DNA of 64,000 nucleotides. Origin: Rhodocyclales bacterium GT-UBC. Its GTDB lineage: Bacteria; Pseudomonadota; Gammaproteobacteria; Burkholderiales; Rhodocyclaceae. Location: NCBI GenBank assembly GCA_003583745.1, contig QXPY01000006.1:124001-188000 (forward strand). Direction: 5' to 3'. The notes beneath the pieces were generated by a model, which saw only the letters and a program-made list of their open reading frames with translations, ran no database searches and was not told where the DNA came from. The translations under genes and the position numbers were made by a program. Numbering within the stretch: position 1 is the first letter of the stretch; each line of letters starts with the position of its first letter. Shown here piece by piece: positions 41,187 to 49,027 of this stretch.

Positions 41187-42731
41187 ATGACCAGCGCCCA
41201 ACAACGTGCCGAACTGCAGCGCCGCATCTGGCAAATTGCCAACGAGGTCCGCGGTGCGGTCGACGGCTGGGATTTCAAGCAATACGTGCTCGGCGCGCTG
41301 TTCTACCGCTTCATCAGCGAAAACTTCGCCGCCTACATCGAAGGCGGTGACGACAGCATCGATTACGCCGAGCTGCCCGACAGCGTCATCACCCCGGCCA
41401 TCAAGGACGACGCCGTCAAGACCAAGGGCTATTTCATCTACCCCAGCCAACTATTCGCCAAGGTCGTCGCCGGCGCCAACACCAACGAAAGCCTGAACAC
41501 CGACCTTGCCGCCATTTTTGCCGCCATCGAAAGCTCCGCCAGCGGCTACCCTTCGGAGCAGGACATCAAGGGCCTGTTTGCCGATTTCGACACCACCAGC
41601 AACAAACTCGGCAATACGGTCAAAGACAAGAACACCCGCCTGGCCGCCGTGCTCAAGGGCGTGGCCGATCTGAATTTTGGTGACTTTAATGCCGTTCACA
41701 TCGACCTCTTCGGCGATGCCTACGAATTCCTCATCTCCAACTACGCCGCCAACGCCGGCAAATCCGGTGGCGAGTTCTTCACGCCGCAAAACGTCTCCAA
41801 GCTGATCGCGCAACTGGCCATGCACAAGCAGACCAGCGTCAACAAGATCTACGACCCGGCCTGCGGCTCCGGCTCGCTGCTGCTGCAAGCCAAGAAACAA
41901 TTCGACGACCACCTCATCGAAGACGGCTTCTACGGGCAGGAAATCAACCACACCACGTACAACCTGGCGCGGATGAACATGTTCCTGCACAACATCAACT
42001 ATGACAAATTCGACATCCAGCTCGGCAACACCCTGACCGAACCGCATTTCGGCGACGAAAAACCCTTCGACGCCATCGTCTCCAACCCGCCCTATTCGGT
42101 GAAGTGGGTCGGCAGCGACGACCCGACGCTGATCAACGACGAACGCTTCGCCCCGGCCGGTGTGCTGGCGCCCAAATCCAAGGCCGACTTCGCCTTCGTG
42201 CTGCACGCCCTCGGCTACCTCTCCGCCAAAGGCCGCGCCGCCATCGTCTGCTTCCCCGGCATCTTCTACCGGGGCGGTGCCGAGCAGAAAATCCGCCAAT
42301 ACCTTGTGGACAACAACTACGTCGAAACGGTGATTTCGCTGGCGCCCAACCTGTTCTTCGGCACCACCATCGCCGTCAATATCCTGGTGCTGTCCAAGCA
42401 CAAGACCGACACCCGAACCCAGTTTATCGACGCCAGCGGCCTGTTCGACAAGAAAACCAATAACAACGAGCTATCCGACCAGCACATCGAAGAAATCATG
42501 CAGGCCTTCGACAGCAAGGCCGATGTCGCGCACTTCGCCCACTCGGTGAGCTTCGAAGCCATCGCCGCCAACGACTACAACCTGTCAGTCAGCAGCTACA
42601 TCGAAGCCAGGGACGACCGCGAAGTCATCGATATTGCCCAGCTCAATGCCGAGTTAAAGACCACTGTTGCCAGGATTGACCTGCTCCGCAAAGAGATTGA
42701 TGCCATCGTGGCGGAAATCGAAGGCTCTTAA
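41187..42731 (+). CDS. hsdM: Type I restriction-modification system methyltransferase subunit
   Basis: 514 aa. N6-adenine DNA methyltransferase subunit of a type I R-M complex (M2S1, with R2). HsdM N-terminal domain ([35 protein letters not shown]), SAM-binding motif [11 protein letters not shown] at residues 223-232 and catalytic motif NPPY at 300-303. Length and pattern agree with EcoR124I-type (type IC) HsdM. Start at 41187 is the first ATG before the family N-terminus. Followed after only 15 nt by an unexpected RelA/SpoT-domain gene. Confidence 0.95.
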
Positions 42732-42746: not shown

Positions 42747-43409
42747 ATGACACTCAGCAATAGCCTGATTACAAAACTGGGCGACAGACTTCGCTGCGGC
42801 GATTTCAGCGAAGCTGACTTGGCGATGCTCGATACTTTTCGCCAAACCTTCAGTGAGGTTGATGAACAGGCCTATCAGCTTATCCAAAGCACGCTTGCAT
42901 CAGCAACGGGCTGGACTAGCACCAAACGCAAGCGCAAAACCCAGCAGTCAATTGTTGATAAGCTGTGTCGCCAGCCCCGGTTACGCTTGCCACAAATGCA
43001 GGATATCGCAGGCTGCCGGATTGTGATTGAGGGCGGCAGTCAGGTAGCAGACACCTTGGGCAGCCTGCTTACTGGCGCATTTGAGCCGCTGCAATGGGAA
43101 ATTGAGCGCAAAGAGCGGCATGCCCATGGTTACCGAGCCACCCATATCATTGCCAAAAAAGGGCAGAAGTTTTACGAAATACAGCTTAGAACGTATGCGC
43201 AGGATGTGTGGGCAAACCTGGTTGAGAGTTTGTCCGATGAGAACAACACCCTCAAATACGGTGGCAACGACCAAGAGCAAGCACTAATGAGTCAGTTGAA
43301 AATTTTGGCGGAGCGATTTTCTGAAATTGACCAAAACGCTCATCAAGTAAGCTTTGAAATCTATCAGCAACAAATAAAGGATGCGATTCACCATGTATTT
43401 TCTCATTGA
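42747..43409 (+). CDS. RelA/SpoT-domain nucleotidyltransferase-like protein inside the R-M operon
   Basis: 220 aa, cytosolic. A single RelA/SpoT synthetase-type domain about residues 55-165: basic donor-binding region TKRKRKTQQSIVDKL, then MQDIAGCRIV (Asp86, Arg91), HGYRATHIIAK (Tyr129, the guanine-stacking position in related synthetases) and YEIQLRTYAQDVWANL (Glu144, Arg148). All core synthetase positions I can identify are kept, so it may be active as a (p)ppGpp/(p)ppApp synthetase or a toxSAS-type tRNA pyrophosphokinase. No hydrolase (HD) domain. Lower GC than hsdM and hsdR. Its 3' end overlaps a small membrane protein gene by 17 nt. Role in the R-M operon is not known to me. Confidence 0.85.
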   Translation: MTLSNSLITKLGDRLRCGDFSEADLAMLDTFRQTFSEVDEQAYQLIQSTLASATGWTSTKRKRKTQQSIVDKLCRQPRLRLPQMQDIAGCRIVIEGGSQVADTLGSLLTGAFEPLQWEIERKERHAHGYRATHIIAKKGQKFYEIQLRTYAQDVWANLVESLSDENNTLKYGGNDQEQALMSQLKILAERFSEIDQNAHQVSFEIYQQQIKDAIHHVFSH

Positions 43410-43677
43410 ACACAATCGCACCACCAAAAAAACTCACTGCGAAGAATTCAGTGATTATGCTGCTGCACAGTTTGCTGGCCTGCAAAAAGAGCAAGAATAC
43501 TTTCATGCCAAGCGCCATGAAATGGAAGTGGTTGTTTTCGAAGCTAATTCAATTGATGATTTAAAGCGGACCCATAGTCGCTATTTTGTTACCGGAGGTA
43601 AAGATGATAATTCAGCAGGCGCTTTGCTGGCCATAGGGCTGATTGGTCTGGCGATTTATCTGCACAATAAAAAGTGA
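43393..43677 (+). CDS. Small one-helix membrane protein overlapping the RelA/SpoT-like gene
   Basis: 94 aa from the ATG at 43393 (an ATG at 43381 adds four residues). Soluble N-terminal part, residues 1-66, mixed charged with YFLIEHNRTTKKTHCEEFS and a conserved-looking end SIDDLKRTHSRYF; a Gly/Asp linker; and one membrane helix at about 75-90 (AGALLAIGLIGLAIYL) with a short KK tail, so probably N-in or tail-anchored. Overlaps the upstream gene by 17 nt and precedes hsdS by 10 nt. The overlap suggests translational coupling and a functional pair with the RelA/SpoT-like protein. I do not recognise a family. Confidence 0.7.
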   Translation: MYFLIEHNRTTKKTHCEEFSDYAAAQFAGLQKEQEYFHAKRHEMEVVVFEANSIDDLKRTHSRYFVTGGKDDNSAGALLAIGLIGLAIYLHNKK

Positions 43678-43687
43678 GTTGTCGAGC

Positions 43688-44878
43688 ATGGATTTTCTGG
43701 AAAAACTGCTGGACGGAGTGGCGGTGGAGTGGCGACCGCTTGGAGATATAGCCAAGTACTCTGATGTCCGTATCGACTCCAGTCGAGTCCGCAAAGATAA
43801 CTATGTAGGCGTTGATAACCTTCTACAGAATCGAGCAGGAAAAACAGACTCGAGTTACGTCCCGAACGTCGGACGCCTTATAGAGTATCTGCCCGGTGAT
43901 ATTTTGATCGGAAATATTCGCCCATATTTGAAGAAAATTTGGCTTGCCAATCAAACTGGAGGCACAAATGGTGACGTACTTGTTATACGGCCGACTCATC
44001 CATCTTTGAGTTCCAGTTACTTGCATCAGGTGCTGACCGATGAGCAATTTTTTGCTTACAACATGCAGCACGCAAAAGGGGCAAAAATGCCTCGGGGTGA
44101 CAAATTAAAGATACTTGAATATCGAATCCCCATCCCCTGCCCGGAAAACCCCAAAAAATCGCTCGAAATCCAGGCCGAAATCGTCCGAATACTGGACGCA
44201 TTTACCTCCCTTACAGCCGAGCTTACAGCCGAGCTTACAGCCGAGCTTAACACCCGAAAACGACAATACAACCACTATCGCGACCAATTGTTGAGTTTTG
44301 AAGAAGGAACTGCGGAGTGGACTCCGCTTGGTGATCTCGCAGAGAACCTTGACAATAAGCGCAAGCCGATTACGAGTGGTTTGAGAGAACCAGGGGATAT
44401 TCCGTACTATGGAGCATCGGGGATTGTCGATTACGTTAAGGACTATATCTTTGACGAAGACCTGTTACTTGTTTCCGAAGATGGCGCAAATTTGCTGGCG
44501 CGAAATACCCCAATTGCTTTCAGTATCAGTGGAAAAAGCTGGGTTAACAATCATGCGCATGTGCTTAAATTTGAAACATATGCCGAGCGCAGATATGTTG
44601 AATACTATTTGAATAGCATTGATCTGACGCCTTATATCTCCGGTGCTGCACAGCCAAAACTCAATAAAAAGAATCTGGAAGACATTAGCATCCCAAATCC
44701 TTCCCTAGAGGAGAAGAAGCGCATCGTCGCCATCCTCGACAAATTCGACGCCCTGACCAATTCCCTCAGCGAGGGCCTGCCCCGCGAAATCGCGTTGCGC
44801 CAGAAGCAATACGAGCATTACCGCGATATGCTATTGAGCTTTCCCAAGCCAGAAGCCCCCACGCCCACCGCCGCCTAA
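43688..44878 (+). CDS. hsdS: Type I restriction-modification specificity subunit (EcoR124I-like)
   Basis: 396 aa. Two target-recognition domains, about residues 15-160 and 205-360, each followed by a conserved helical region. The central spacer reads LTAELTAELTAELNTRKRQY at residues 175-194; the repeat and the RKRQYNHYRDQLLSF motif, echoed at the C-terminus by RQKQYEHYRDMLLSFP, are as in type IC subunits. In EcoR124I the number of TAEL repeats (two or three) sets the spacer of the recognition site, so this protein should use the longer form. GC content is markedly lower in the recognition domains (about 44.3-44.7 kb), typical of exchangeable HsdS domains. Recognised sequence unknown. Confidence 0.93.
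   Translation: MDFLEKLLDGVAVEWRPLGDIAKYSDVRIDSSRVRKDNYVGVDNLLQNRAGKTDSSYVPNVGRLIEYLPGDILIGNIRPYLKKIWLANQTGGTNGDVLVIRPTHPSLSSSYLHQVLTDEQFFAYNMQHAKGAKMPRGDKLKILEYRIPIPCPENPKKSLEIQAEIVRILDAFTSLTAELTAELTAELNTRKRQYNHYRDQLLSFEEGTAEWTPLGDLAENLDNKRKPITSGLREPGDIPYYGASGIVDYVKDYIFDEDLLLVSEDGANLLARNTPIAFSISGKSWVNNHAHVLKFETYAERRYVEYYLNSIDLTPYISGAAQPKLNKKNLEDISIPNPSLEEKKRIVAILDKFDALTNSLSEGLPREIALRQKQYEHYRDMLLSFPKPEAPTPTAA
44210..44245 (+). repeat. Three tandem 12-bp repeats in hsdS (TAEL repeats)
   Basis: CTTACAGCCGAG occurs three times in exact tandem at 44210-44221, 44222-44233 and 44234-44245, encoding L-T-A-E three times. Twelve base pairs keep the frame, so slippage changes the length of the helix between the recognition domains without inactivating the gene. 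Confidence 0.95.
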
Positions 44879-44888
44879 GGAGGGAGCC

Positions 44889-45932
44889 ATGTCCAGGCAC
44901 CATCTCACGCTTCGCGACCAGACCACGGAATTCCTGCTCTACACCGCGCCCAACGGCGCAGTCAAAGTCGAAGTCCTGCTCAGCAATGAAAGCATCTGGC
45001 TGACGCAAAAGCGCATGGCGGAGTTGTTTGGCGTGGGCGTGCCGGCCATTTCCAAGCATCTGAAGAACATCTTCGACAGTGGCGAGTTGGTGGAAGAAGT
45101 GGTTGTTTCCATTTTGGAAACAACCACTGAGCATGGCGCCGTGGCGGGCCTTACCCAGACCCAGCAGGTCAAGTATTACAACCTGGATGCGGTGATTTCG
45201 GTGGGCTACCGGGTCAATTCGGCGCAGGCGACGCAATTCCGCATCTGGGCGACGGCCTTGATCAAGGAGTACATCATCAAGGGCTTTGCCATGGATGATG
45301 AGCGTCTGAAGAATGGCCGCTTCTTTGGCAAGGATTATTTCCGTGAGTTACTGGAGCGGGTGCGCTCGATCCGCGCCAGCGAGCGGCGGATTTATCAGCA
45401 GATCACAGATATTTTTGCCGAGTGCAGCATCGATTACGACGCGAAATCCGAGACCACTCGCCTGTTCTACGCCCATGTGCAGGACAAGTTTCATTTTGCG
45501 ATCACCGGCCACACGGCGGCCGAAATCATTTTGCTGAAGGCCGACGCCAGCAAGCCCTTGATGGGCATGAGCACCTACAAGAATGCGCCGGATGGCCGAG
45601 TGCTGAAATCCGATTCGCTGGTGGCGAAAAACTACTTGAGCGAAGAAGAAATCCGGAAACTTGAGCGCGCCGTTTCCGCTTTTTTTGATTACATCGAAGG
45701 CATCATCGAGCGGCGCAATACCTTCACGATGGAGAGCTTTGCCGAAAGCGTGGACAAGTTTCTCTCCTTCAACGAGTACCGGATTCTGGAAGGCTACGGA
45801 TCGGTCAGCCGACAGCAGGCCGAGGCGAAAGCCGTTGCCGAATATGAAAAGTTCAACAAGCAGCAGCGCATCGAATCCGACTTCGACCGCGCAGTAAAAA
45901 AGCTGCTGCAAAAGAGGGGCGCCGAGGAATGA
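44889..45932 (+). CDS. rhuM: RhuM-family protein in the R-M operon
   Basis: 347 aa, cytosolic. Contains an N-terminal KilA-N/helix-turn-helix-like part ([33 protein letters not shown]) and the RhuM core ([33 protein letters not shown] is the family hallmark region), then [11 protein letters not shown]-like, here [19 protein letters not shown]. The family was named from a Salmonella pathogenicity island gene and is often found within or beside type I R-M operons; its molecular role is unclear. Starts 10 nt after hsdS and overlaps hsdR by 4 nt (ATGA). Confidence 0.88.
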
Positions 45933-48900
45933 GCGACTACAAGACCATTGCCGAATCGAACAGCTTCATCGTCCTGGATAAGTACGTCAAGGAATGGCAG
46001 GCGAACGAGAGCTACCAGAGCGAATACGACCTGGAGCGGGAATTCATTCAGGATTTGCAGAATCAGGGCTACGACTATATGCCCGAGCTGAACACGCCGG
46101 AGAAGCTGCTGGCCAATGTGCGCGACGCTTTGCAAACGCTGAACAATGTGCAGTTTTCTGACGGCGAATGGCTACGTTTTGTGGAAACCTGGCTGGACAA
46201 GCCGAGCGATGGCATCGTCGAGAAAACTCGCAAGATTCACGACGACTACGTGCACGACTTTGTCTTTGATGATGGGCATATACAGAACATCTACCTGCTG
46301 GATAAAAAGAACATTGCCCGCAACAAGGTGCAGGTGATCCGGCAGTTTGAGCAAAAGGGCAGCCACGCCAACCGTTACGACGTGACGATCTTGGTGAACG
46401 GCCTGCCGCTGGTGCAGGTGGAGCTGAAAAAACGCGGCGTGGCGATTCGCGAAGCCTTCAACCAGGTGCACCGCTACAGCAAGGAGAGCTTCAACAGCGA
46501 GTATTCCCTGTTCAAGTATCTGCAACTGTTCGTGATCTCCAACGGCACTGACAGCCGTTATTTCGCCAACACCACGCAGCGCAACAAGAACAGTTTCGAC
46601 TTCACCATGAACTGGGCGAGGGCGGATAACACGCTGATCAAGGATTTGAAGGACTTCACTGCCACCTTCTTCCAGAAAAAGACTTTGCTCAACGTGCTGC
46701 TGCATTATTCGGTTTTCGATGCCAGCAACACGCTGCTGGTCATGCGGCCCTACCAGATCGCCGCCACCGAACGCATCCTGTGGAAGATCAACTGCGCCTG
46801 GCAGGCGAAGAACTGGAGCAACACGGAAAGCGGCGGCTACATCTGGCACACCACCGGCTCCGGCAAGACCCTGACCAGCTTCAAGGCGGCACGGCTGGCC
46901 ACCGAGCTGGATTTCATCGACAAGGTGTTTTTCGTGGTCGACCGCAAGGATCTGGATTACCAGACCATGAAGGAATACCAGCGTTTTTCGCCGGACAGCG
47001 TCAATGGTTCGGACAGCACGGCCGGCCTCAAGCGCAATCTGGACAAGGACGACAACAAGATCATCGTCACCACCATCCAGAAGCTCAACAACCTGATGAA
47101 GAGCGAGGGCGACCTGCCCATCTACGGCAAGCAGGTGGTGTTCATTTTCGACGAGTGCCACCGCAGCCAGTTTGGCGAAGCGCAGAAAAACCTGAAAAAG
47201 AAGTTCAAGAAGTTCTATCAGTTCGGCTTCACTGGCACGCCGATCTTCCCGCAGAACGCCCTCGGCGCGGAAACCACCGCCAGCGTGTTCGGCCGCGAAC
47301 TGCATTCCTATGTGATTACCGACGCTATCCGCGATGAAAAGGTGCTGAAGTTCAAGGTGGATTACAACGACGTCCGCCCGCAATTCAAGGCCGTCGAAAG
47401 CGAGCAGGACGAGAAGAAGCTCAGCGCGGCGGAAAACCGGCAGGCCTTGCTGCACCCTGACCGCATCGGCGAAATCACCCAGTACATCCTGAACAACTTC
47501 CGGCAGAAAACCCATCGCCTACAAGCCAGCGCCAAGGGCTTCAACGCCATGTTCGCGGTAAGCAGCGTGGAGGCCGCCAAGCTGTACTACGACTCCTTCA
47601 AGGATTTGCAGAAGAACAGTGACAAGCCGCTGAAAGTGGCGACCATCTTTTCGTTTGCCGCCAACGAGGAACAGGATGCTGTGGGCGACATCCAGGACGA
47701 AAGCTTCGATGTTTCCGCCATGAGCGTCAGCGCCAAGGAGTTCCTGAGCGCCGCCATCGCCGATTACAACGCGCTGTTCAAGACCAATTTCAGCGTCGAC
47801 AGCAACGGCTTCCAGAACTATTACCGCGATCTGGCCAAGCAGGTGAAAGCCAAGGAAATCGACCTGTTGATCGTGGTCGGCATGTTCCTGACCGGCTTCG
47901 ATGCGCCGACGCTGAATACCCTGTTCGTCGACAAGAACCTGCGCTACCACGGCCTGATGCAGGCCTATTCGCGCACCAACCGCATTTTTGACGCGACCAA
48001 GACCTTCGGCAACATCGTTACCTTCCGCGATCTGGAACAGGCGACCATCGACGCCATCACCTTGTTCGGTGACAAGAACACCAAGAACGTGGTGCTGGAG
48101 AAGAGCTACAAGGAATACATGGAGGGCTTCACCGATGTGCTGACTGGTGAGGCGCGCCGTGGCTTCGTGGACGTGGTGCGCGAGCTGGAGCAGCGTTTCC
48201 CCGACCCTGCAGCCATCGAAAAGGAATCCGACAAGAAGGCTTTTGTGAAGCTGTTCGGGGAGTATCTGCGCGTCGAGAATGTGCTGCAGAACTTCGACGA
48301 ATTCGCCAGTCTGAAGGCTTTGCAGGCTCTGGATATGAACGACCCGGCGGCCGTCGAGGCGTTCAAGGCGCAGCGTTATTTGAGCGACGACGACCTGGCT
48401 GCGCTACAGGCGATCAAGATTCCGGCGGAACGGAAGATCCAGGATTACCGTTCAACCTATAACGACGTGCGCGACTGGCTGCGCCGGGAAAAATCTTCCG
48501 CAGAGAAGGAAAAATCGACCATCGACTGGGACGACGTGGTTTTCGAGGTCGATCTGCTGAAATCGCAGGAAATCAACCTCGACTACATCCTGGAACTGAT
48601 CTTCGAGCACAACAAGAAGATCAAGGACAAGGCCGCGTTGATCGAAGACGTGCGGCGGGTGATTCGCGCCAGCCTGGGCAACCGTGCCAAGGAAAGCCTG
48701 TTGGTCGATTTCATCAACCAGACCGACCTCGACCAGATCGGCGACAAGGCTAACGTGATCGACGCCTTCTTCACTTTTGCCCAGGCGGAGCAACAACGCG
48801 AGGCACAAGAGTTGATCAGTGACGAGAGCCTGAACGCCGAGGCGGCCAGGCGTTACATCACGACCTCTCTAAAACGTGAATTCGCCAGTGACAACGGGAC

Positions 48901-49027
48901 TGAACTCAATGCGGTTTTGCCAAAGATGAGCCCATTGAATCCGCAGTACCTGACTAAAAAGCAGAGTGTTTTTCAGAAAATCGCTGCTTTTGTGGAGAAG
49001 TTCAAAGGCGTGGGCGGGCAGGTTTAA
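45929..49027 (+). CDS. hsdR: Type I restriction endonuclease subunit (EcoR124I-like)
   Basis: 1032 aa. PD-(D/E)xK nuclease domain with Asp151 (RYDVTILV) and Glu165/Lys167 (VELKK), followed by the type I QxxxY motif Gln179-Tyr183 (QVHRY). As I recall, these are the same residue numbers as the nuclease site of EcoR124I HsdR. Superfamily 2 motor: Walker [14 protein letters not shown] box [20 protein letters not shown], and motif VI region [12 protein letters not shown]. Translocates DNA and cuts at a distance after meeting unmethylated sites. Last gene of the operon, overlapping rhuM by 4 nt. Confidence 0.96.

What the first reader, a model, noticed from the sequence alone, without database searches (positions are those of the whole stretch)
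42747..43677. RelA/SpoT-like protein and overlapping membrane protein look like a toxin-antitoxin or enzyme-anchor pair
The synthetase keeps Asp86, Arg91, Tyr129, Glu144 and Arg148 at the expected active-site positions and has no hydrolase domain, so unopposed activity would be harmful. The next gene overlaps it by 17 nt and encodes a soluble head plus one C-terminal helix. A membrane-tethered neutraliser or sensor is plausible; known toxSAS antitoxins are mostly soluble, which would make this variant new.
Basis: partly seen in the sequence, partly recalled or inferred. Interest (0 to 1): 0.65.

Follow-up and report, generated by a model that had tools for sequence, protein, structure and literature searches.

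The report
Tail-anchored toxSAS toxin-antitoxin inside restriction operon
Two overlapping genes inside a DNA-restriction operon look like a known kind of growth-arresting anti-phage toxin and its antitoxin, except that this antitoxin has a conserved greasy tail that probably fixes it to the cell membrane.

Summary
ORF1 (42747-43409, 220 aa) is a single-domain RelA/SpoT synthetase with its active site intact. ORF2 (43393-43677, 94 aa) overlaps it by 17 nt and has a soluble head, a loose linker and one C-terminal hydrophobic helix. Both match, in the same order, Phrann gp29/gp30 (PhRel/ATphRel), a published anti-phage toxSAS pair, and the two parts of PADLOC model PDC-S33, which CapRel-SJ46 hits at 7e-87.

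The pair lies between hsdM and hsdS of a type I restriction operon. Six of nine relatives found elsewhere have the same arrangement; the other three keep the antitoxin but have lost or broken the toxin. None of 29 more distant antitoxin loci shows the tail (one is masked past the head) or hsd neighbours. The tail is as constrained as the head (pN/pS 0.21 and 0.23; linker 0.70).

Best reading: an unfused CapRel/PhRel-type toxSAS module whose antitoxin is probably tail-anchored, riding in a type IC restriction operon much as PrrC does in EcoprrI. Toxicity, neutralisation, membrane insertion and trigger are inferred, not shown. It is a new variant of a known kind.

The parts
42747..43409 (+). ORF1: toxSAS-type RelA/SpoT synthetase, 220 aa, inferred toxin
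   Evidence: Pfam RelA_SpoT 1.8e-12; PADLOC PDC-S33 6.2e-26; tblastn Phrann gp29 1e-6; AF2 mean pLDDT 92.9, Foldseek top hit CapRel 9erv 8.3e-8
43002..43004 (+). Asp86 codon of ORF1, in the QDIAGCR motif
   Evidence: conserved in 20 of 21 aligned toxins
43176..43178 (+). Glu144 codon of ORF1, in EIQLR
   Evidence: conserved in 21 of 21
43376..43381 (+). AAAGGA, likely ribosome site for ORF2 inside the 3' end of ORF1
   Evidence: AGGA at this place in 9 of 10 clade members
43393..43677 (+). ORF2: inferred antitoxin, 94 aa (gp30/ATphRel-like head, linker, hydrophobic tail)
   Evidence: phrog_22117 6.6e-11; profile match to gp30-like group prob 98.9, E 1.2e-17; AF2 model and VIA-align, ATfaRel2 Z 5.6
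43573..43584 (+). HSRY (H61-Y64), counterpart of the YXXY neutralisation motif of CapRel
   Evidence: aligned to YPNY of the CapRel C-terminal domain; H61, R63, Y64 and F65 invariant in 26 of 26
43591..43614 (+). linker, residues 67-74, variable
   Evidence: pN/pS 0.70; low pLDDT over residues 69-80
43615..43674 (+). hydrophobic C-terminal tail, residues 75-94, probable tail anchor
   Evidence: KD15 2.36, clade 2.25-2.92 against 1.15 or less in 29 others; pN/pS 0.205; helix 75-93 in the model, low confidence
41187..42731 (+). hsdM, type I methyltransferase
   Evidence: TIGR00497 5.1e-197
43688..44878 (+). hsdS, specificity subunit
   Evidence: Methylase_S 2.5e-33
44889..45932 (+). RhuM-family gene, second passenger (PADLOC PDC-S05)
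   Evidence: Virulence_RhuM 1.3e-101; PDC-S05 4.1e-150
45929..49027 (+). hsdR, restriction subunit with EcoR124_C domain
   Evidence: TIGR00348 5.2e-208; EcoR124_C 9.7e-72

Best explanation
ORF1-ORF2 is an unfused toxSAS toxin-antitoxin module of the CapRel/PhRel kind, carried inside a type IC restriction-modification operon. ORF1, when free, would use ATP to pyrophosphorylate tRNA 3'-CCA ends and stop translation (inferred from relatives). The ORF2 head would sit on the ATP donor site of ORF1 through its HXXY motif, the counterpart of YXXY in CapRel and ATfaRel2 (inferred from fold and alignment). The C-terminal tail would hold antitoxin and bound toxin at the inner membrane (predicted). The pair is probably made together with the restriction enzyme and most likely acts as a second line of defence: a phage trigger, still unknown, loosens ORF2 and the cell arrests. 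Shown here: gene order, overlap, homology, conservation of the tail and the repeated operon context. Not shown: activity, complex, membrane insertion, co-transcription, trigger.
For: Same-order match to Phrann gp29 (E 1e-6) and gp30 (41.5% over residues 3-65; weak, E 0.08); ORF2 hits gp30's family phrog_22117 (6.6e-11; gp30 itself 3.1e-38); profile-profile ORF2 clade against gp30-like group prob 98.9, E 1.2e-17 and against the CapRel C-terminal domain prob 81.6, E 1.1e-5, HSRY on YPNY. Two parts of one model: ORF1 matches PDC-S33 8-232 and ORF2 265-329; CapRel-SJ46 hits that model at 7e-87. Structure: ORF1 model nearest CapRel 9erv and 7ztb; ORF2 head nearest ATfaRel2 (Z 5.6, rmsd 1.7, 56 residues), CapRel at Z 4.4. 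Operon: hsdM-toxin-antitoxin-hsdS in the window and 6 of 9 relatives, 17-nt overlap in all seven. In the other 3 the toxin is lost or broken and the antitoxin open. Tail. Published functions: passages of PMC9712102, PMC11782079, PMC9262239.
Against: No experiment was done. Profile search of the PDB puts CapRel (3.9e-16) barely ahead of the housekeeping synthetase RelP (4.6e-16), so ORF1 alone does not prove a toxin. tblastn of ORF2 to gp30 is not significant by itself, and gp30 itself does not reach PDC-S33 at E 0.01. The Foldseek hit of ORF2 to CapRel is not significant (E 1.6), and a VIA-align Z of 5.6 is modest, with an unrelated designed protein next at 4.5. The first Tyr of YXXY is His here. 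The hydrophobic stretch is short (about 15-16 residues), its helix is modelled at low confidence, and L063 scores slightly unfavourable (+0.36, scale recalled). Lys at the very C-terminus sits awkwardly with a cytoplasmic head under the positive-inside rule (recalled). Relatives were found through the antitoxin, so a toxin without antitoxin could have been missed. The control restriction loci lack the pair (0 of 20 fetched, 19 readable at the junction), so it is a passenger and not a required part.
Confidence: 0.72

Rival explanations
1. The pair is as described, but the tail is not a membrane anchor: it is a packing or oligomerisation helix (small residues A80, G82, G85 and A87 are invariant), or a hydrophobic degradation signal that makes the antitoxin labile.
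For: The tail is short (15-16 residues) with invariant small residues in 10 of 10. FaRel2-ATfaRel2 is a heterotetramer whose stability rests on oligomerisation (passages of PMC11782079).
Against: With a recalled insertion scale the tail scores favourable for a membrane in 9 of 10 clade members, and nothing similar is seen in the 29 others.
Confidence: 0.25
2. ORF1 is a (pp)pApp synthetase of the FaRel/Tas1 type and kills by draining ATP rather than by modifying tRNA.
For: The active-site residues checked are those of alarmone synthetases in general, and ORF1's net charge is slightly negative (-2), not obviously made for RNA.
Against: pZFD-type antitoxins block the ATP donor site and go with tRNA-targeting toxSAS, while (pp)pApp makers are blocked at the acceptor site by Tis1-like domains (passages of PMC11782079). 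The nearest relatives are of the CapRel/PhRel kind.
Confidence: 0.12
3. ORF1 is an alarmone synthetase under control of a membrane partner, an enzyme-anchor or sensor pair rather than a toxin-antitoxin.
For: RelP and RelQ structures score close to CapRel.
Against: The partner belongs to the gp30/ATphRel family. The pair sits in a restriction operon, and the genome has two long RelA/SpoT-domain frames of its own. In 3 of 9 relatives the synthetase is lost or broken and the partner is kept.
Confidence: 0.08
4. It is a chance passenger that is decaying and has no present function.
For: The cassette is rare (only the window's own copy at clade-level identity in 369 class and 398 phylum genomes, own genome included), and 3 of 9 relatives are damaged.
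Against: pN/pS about 0.2 in head and tail across the ten clade members; the five named active-site residues intact in the window and 6 of 6 intact relatives.
Confidence: 0.04

Closest known systems
PhRel-ATphRel (Mycobacterium phage Phrann gp29-gp30)
   Same: Two genes in the same order; ORF2 head is in gp30's protein family; published anti-phage toxSAS pair
   Different: gp30 is 71 aa with no hydrophobic tail; gp29 is longer (292 aa); found in a mycobacterial phage, not a restriction operon; the two genes do not overlap there
CapRel-SJ46 (fused toxSAS, matches PADLOC PDC-S33)
   Same: Synthetase and pZFD-type C-terminal domain; ORF1 and ORF2 match the two parts of one model
   Different: CapRel-SJ46 is one fused chain with YXXY; here two chains, HXXY, and a membrane-type tail; outside the fused clade in the tree
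FaRel2-ATfaRel2
   Same: Two-gene tRNA-targeting toxSAS pair; the ORF2 head superposes on ATfaRel2 at 1.7 A over 56 residues
   Different: ATfaRel2 was solved as a small compact protein without such a tail and keeps YXXY; PMC11782079 suggests it is circularly permuted relative to the CapRel domain (passages)
Unfused CapRel of Vibrio harveyi with a PanA antitoxin
   Same: An unfused CapRel-type toxSAS of a proteobacterium with a separate antitoxin (passages of PMC8832971)
   Different: Its antitoxin is of the Panacea family, not a gp30-like head with a tail
PrrC in EcoprrI (type IC restriction operon)
   Same: A translation-blocking, tRNA-directed toxin gene embedded in a type IC hsd operon
   Different: PrrC is an anticodon nuclease silenced by the restriction enzyme itself; here a presumed pyrophosphokinase with its own antitoxin
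DarTG2 embedded in a type I restriction island of EPEC
   Same: A toxin-antitoxin pair inside a type I hsd operon
   Different: Different toxin chemistry (DNA ADP-ribosylation); lies between hsdS and hsdR (passages of PMC12255303)

Membership tests
toxSAS toxin-antitoxin (CapRel/PhRel group) | single RelA/SpoT synthetase domain with conserved active site, no hydrolase | tested here: met
toxSAS toxin-antitoxin (CapRel/PhRel group) | adjacent antitoxin with pZFD/gp30-like domain | tested here: met
   by sequence: phrog_22117 6.6e-11, profile match E 1.2e-17; by fold only modest: ATfaRel2 top in VIA-align at Z 5.6, Foldseek not significant
toxSAS toxin-antitoxin (CapRel/PhRel group) | YXXY neutralisation motif | tested here: inconclusive
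   HXXY in ORF2 and in the unfused gp30-like relatives, gp30 itself included; second Tyr and the next Phe kept
toxSAS toxin-antitoxin (CapRel/PhRel group) | toxin arrests growth and the antitoxin rescues | not testable with these tools
   needs expression assay
toxSAS toxin-antitoxin (CapRel/PhRel group) | pyrophosphorylation of tRNA CCA ends | not testable with these tools
   needs enzyme assay
CapRel (fused) | toxin and antitoxin in one chain | tested here: not met
   two overlapping ORFs in window and six relatives; outside the fused clade in the tree (84/85)
PhRel proper (clade of Phrann gp29) | groups with gp29 in the toxin tree | tested here: not met
   window clade 100/100, sister to L089 and L032 (91/89); gp29 lies in an 18-row fork (100/94) without it; base of the tree unresolved
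Tail-anchored membrane protein | single C-terminal hydrophobic helix | tested here: met
   KD15 2.25-2.92 in 10 of 10; helix 75-93 predicted at low confidence
Tail-anchored membrane protein | inserted in the membrane, head in the cytoplasm | not testable with these tools
   needs fractionation or topology reporter
PrrC-like restriction guard | toxin gene embedded in a type IC hsd operon | tested here: met
   type IC inferred from the EcoR124_C domain and the TAEL repeats in hsdS
PrrC-like restriction guard | toxin held silent by the restriction enzyme and freed by anti-restriction proteins | not testable with these tools
   needs phage or Ocr/Stp assay

The most novel reading that the evidence does not exclude
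The antitoxin is a membrane-based sensor. Its tail keeps a latent tRNA-disabling toxin at the inner membrane next to the restriction enzyme. A phage event at the membrane (DNA entry, depolarisation, lysis proteins) or loss of the restriction complex pulls the head off the toxin. Among the systems in the papers I saw, this would be the first toxSAS pair triggered by location rather than by a phage protein binding the antitoxin domain, and a two-tier guard on restriction.
Probability: 0.22. Interest if true: 0.8.

Novelty: new variant of a known kind. Interest (0 to 1): 0.56.

Why it matters
How CapRel/PhRel-type toxins are triggered is a live question; for CapRel-SJ46 the sensor is the antitoxin domain, which binds phage proteins (passages of PMC9712102 and PMC11578894). 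Here that domain is a separate protein with a tail under selection, and wherever toxin and antitoxin are both intact (7 of 10 loci) they sit in the same slot of a type I restriction operon. That gives a clean test of whether location at the membrane is part of sensing, and whether restriction and tRNA-directed arrest are coupled as in PrrC-EcoprrI. It also links PADLOC's unnamed candidate PDC-S33 to CapRel and adds an unfused, gp30-type lineage from Proteobacteria.

Tried and rejected
Spread on phages or plasmids was looked for: no member of the tailed clade turned up in phages, plasmids (18, 33), viral contigs (19, 34, 54) or E. coli genomes by DNA. Promoters and terminators: counts equal to shuffles (5 against 4.8; 12 against 11.9), so nothing is claimed. 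Foldseek for ORF2 against the PDB gave no significant hit, which is why VIA-align was run. I tried to read an Arg-to-Lys change at residue 62 of ORF1 as coevolution with HXXY; the alignment around KRKRK is ambiguous and it was dropped. A model of the toxin-antitoxin complex was not made: the folding tool takes one chain, I met no natural in-frame fusion of this clade, and only two folding jobs were allowed. Papers: PDC-S33 is in no paper of the library; six membrane-antitoxin phrases, none found; the search with CapRel, hsdM, type I restriction and embedded listed 15 of 617 papers holding two of the four terms, and of those 15 only PMC12255303 holds 'CapRel', as a comparison. A negative here covers only the open PMC library. 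Papers were seen as passages (PMC9712102, PMC11782079, PMC11559606, PMC8832971, PMC11578894, PMC9262239, PMC8118318, PMC3874165, PMC2610378, PMC12255303); none was read whole.

Rows dropped: L003 (no match to the toxin profile), L022 (broken by a stop) and L064 (early stop), 3 of 49 toxin rows, before the tree; fused proteins were cut to their first 250 residues and the N-terminal extension of L086 was left off for it. Searches took 20 of the 25 non-own HsdM hits; L109 ends before the hsdM-hsdS junction. Among the 29 tail-less antitoxins, L078 is masked past its head, and some are near-copies (L068/L069, L067/L091, L083/L085).

Full report
WHAT IS THERE. ORF1 (42747-43409) and ORF2 (43393-43677) are real and overlap by 17 nt. 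ORF1 is one RelA_SpoT domain (Pfam 1.8e-12, residues 63-157). D86 is kept in 20 of 21 aligned toxins and R91, Y129, E144 and R148 in 21 of 21. The genome has two other RelA_SpoT matches, both in long frames (1134 and 719 aa). The pair sits between hsdM and hsdS of a type I restriction operon; a RhuM-family gene and hsdR follow. HsdR has the EcoR124_C domain and HsdS has three TAEL repeats, which PMC3874165 (passages) describes for EcoR124II, EcoDXXI and EcoprrI, all listed there as type IC or variants of a type IC enzyme; the type IC label is inferred from this.

WHAT THE TWO PROTEINS ARE. In the phage collection ORF1 matches five records (E limit 1e-3) and ORF2 four (E limit 1). Four records, two of Phrann, WST1 and IME1320_01, are hit by both, in the same order; the ORF2 scores are weak (E 0.08-0.3). 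Phrann gp29/gp30 is the PhRel/ATphRel pair; reviews say it defends against other phages and that gp29 is toxic (passages of PMC9262239 and PMC8118318). ORF2 hits gp30's own PHROG family (6.6e-11; gp30 3.1e-38), and profile against profile gives prob 98.9, E 1.2e-17. PADLOC's single-gene candidate PDC-S33 matches ORF1 at 8-232 and ORF2 at 265-329 of 349. CapRel-SJ46 hits that model at 7e-87 over nearly its whole length, so PDC-S33 takes in CapRel, and ORF1 plus ORF2 correspond to a split CapRel; gp30 alone does not reach the model. The aligned C-terminal domains put ORF2's HSRY on CapRel's YPNY (prob 81.6, E 1.1e-5; PDB profile search, E 0.43). In CapRel and ATfaRel2 this YXXY blocks the ATP donor site (passages of PMC9712102 and PMC11782079).

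STRUCTURE. ORF1 model: mean pLDDT 92.9; the first three Foldseek hits are CapRel chains (8e-8 to 3e-7), then RelP and RelQ-type enzymes. By profile search CapRel and RelP are nearly level (3.9e-16, 4.6e-16). ORF2 model: head confident, linker unordered, helix 75-93 at low confidence. Foldseek: nothing significant, best CapRel at E 1.6. VIA-align of 77 chains: ATfaRel2 first (Z 5.6, rmsd 1.7 A, 56 residues), the only one at Z 5 or more; CapRel third and fourth at 4.4, level with an unrelated designed protein at 4.5. This agrees with, but does not prove, a pZFD fold.

A COHERENT CLADE. A scan of one genome for each of 84,980 species with the antitoxin alignment gave 34 relatives. Nine (L057-L065; Dechloromonas, Roseateles, Catenovulum, Marinomonas, Amphritea, Endozoicomonas and others) are 61-87% identical and carry the tail. 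The other 25, plus 4 from viral contigs, do not show it: best 15-residue hydropathy is 2.25-2.92 in the window and the nine, and 1.15 or less in the 29 (L078 is masked past its head). With the window, 7 of 10 loci have hsdM-toxin-antitoxin-hsdS and hsdR, each with the 17-nt overlap. In L062 the toxin is gone and hsdM has lost its middle; in L060 the toxin and any hsd gene within 8 kb are gone; in L064 the toxin has an early stop and no hsd gene was found in the stretch read. In all three the antitoxin is open. Losing the toxin while keeping the antitoxin is what a toxin-antitoxin pair would allow, but because the search started from the antitoxin the reverse could not be seen. None of the 29 tail-less loci has an ORF like the window's HsdM, HsdS or HsdR (E 1e-3) in the stretch read, up to 8 kb on each side (5 kb for viral contigs; several contigs are short).

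THE TAIL IS SELECTED. Over all pairs of the ten genes, pN/pS is 0.233 for residues 1-66, 0.702 for the linker and 0.205 for residues 75-94; pS is near saturation in all three (0.66-0.72), so the ratios compare regions and are not absolute. With an insertion scale recalled from memory the tail scores -3.0 to +0.4 in the clade and +7.7 or worse elsewhere. Invariant A80, G82, G85 and A87 also allow a packing helix.

CONTROLS. HsdM at E 1e-120 was found in 26 of 399 genomes of the order, the window's own among them. Of the other 25 I fetched 20; none has toxin or antitoxin (phmmer E 1e-3). 13 run straight from hsdM to hsdS, 3 hold a Fic gene (Pfam run on two of them), 1 a RhuM-type gene, 2 a gap of about 0.33 kb, and 1 is cut. 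The slot between hsdS and hsdR holds AAA_13, Fic, Bro-N, RhuM or other genes, or nothing. So the pair is one of several passengers that use these slots. The toxin itself was searched in 369 class and 398 phylum genomes (E 1e-12, own included): only the window's own copy belongs to the clade. Two weaker hits (36-37%), L116 and L117, stand beside tail-less gp30-like genes; the L117 toxin reads as two frames.

TREE. 46 toxins: the tailed clade is 100/100, next to two unfused pairs with tail-less antitoxins (L089, L032; 91/89); fused CapRel 84/85; a mostly actinobacterial and phage group with gp29 91/81; deeper order unresolved. PMC9712102 says CapRel is mostly fused except in Actinobacteria, that PhRel is mostly unfused, and that fusion or fission happened several times; an unfused proteobacterial CapRel with another kind of antitoxin is also published (PMC8832971). 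So being unfused is not new; the tailed gp30-type partner is what I found no record of.

HOW IT MOST LIKELY WORKS. See Best explanation. Shown: order, overlap, homology, tail conservation, operon context. Inferred: toxicity, tRNA target, donor-site block, membrane location, trigger. PrrC in EcoprrI (passages of PMC3874165 and PMC2610378) and DarTG2 in an EPEC restriction island (PMC12255303) are precedents for toxins inside type I operons.

VERDICT. A new variant of a known kind: an unfused CapRel/PhRel-type toxSAS pair with a probably tail-anchored antitoxin, as a passenger in a type IC restriction operon.

Noticed in passing
44210-44245: Three 12-bp repeats (CTTACAGCCGAG) in hsdS coding Thr-Ala-Glu-Leu, the spacer repeat known from EcoR124I/II, where copy number changes the DNA target (PMC3874165).
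   Followed up: no
44889-45932: RhuM-family gene (PADLOC PDC-S05) as a second passenger between hsdS and hsdR, overlapping hsdR by 4 nt; also in L057, L062, L063, L105, L107, and as a fragment in L065.
   Followed up: partly
L058 6867-8000; L059 9572-10687; L063 9534-10706; L096, L100: AAA_13 ATPase of about 370-410 aa between hsdS and hsdR; the family is recalled to include PrrC, so these may be further nucleic-acid-directed guards.
   Followed up: partly
L095 7655-8257 (minus), L098 1585-2190; L101 (reverse complement) 1707-2312: A 201-aa Fic gene in the same hsdM-hsdS slot that the toxSAS pair occupies here (Pfam run for L095 and L098; L101 by similarity of its start).
   Followed up: partly
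L060 8001-8285; L062 8001-8285; L064 8001-8297: Antitoxins left with the toxin lost or broken; they might act against incoming relatives of the toxin.
   Followed up: partly
L052 2424-6192 (Pseudarthrobacter plasmid): PhRel-type toxin with a gp30-like antitoxin not annotated in the PLSDB table, a few kb from TIR and caspase genes.
   Followed up: no
L032 1498-2428 (reverse complement of the locus), L088, L089, L116, L117: toxSAS-like genes beside tail-less gp30-like antitoxins outside Actinobacteria; L032 and L089 are the nearest relatives of the tailed clade in the tree, and L032 also has a 17-nt overlap.
   Followed up: partly
L065 4055-4978 (minus): Abi_2 abortive-infection gene upstream of the Marinomonas copy of the operon.
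   Followed up: no
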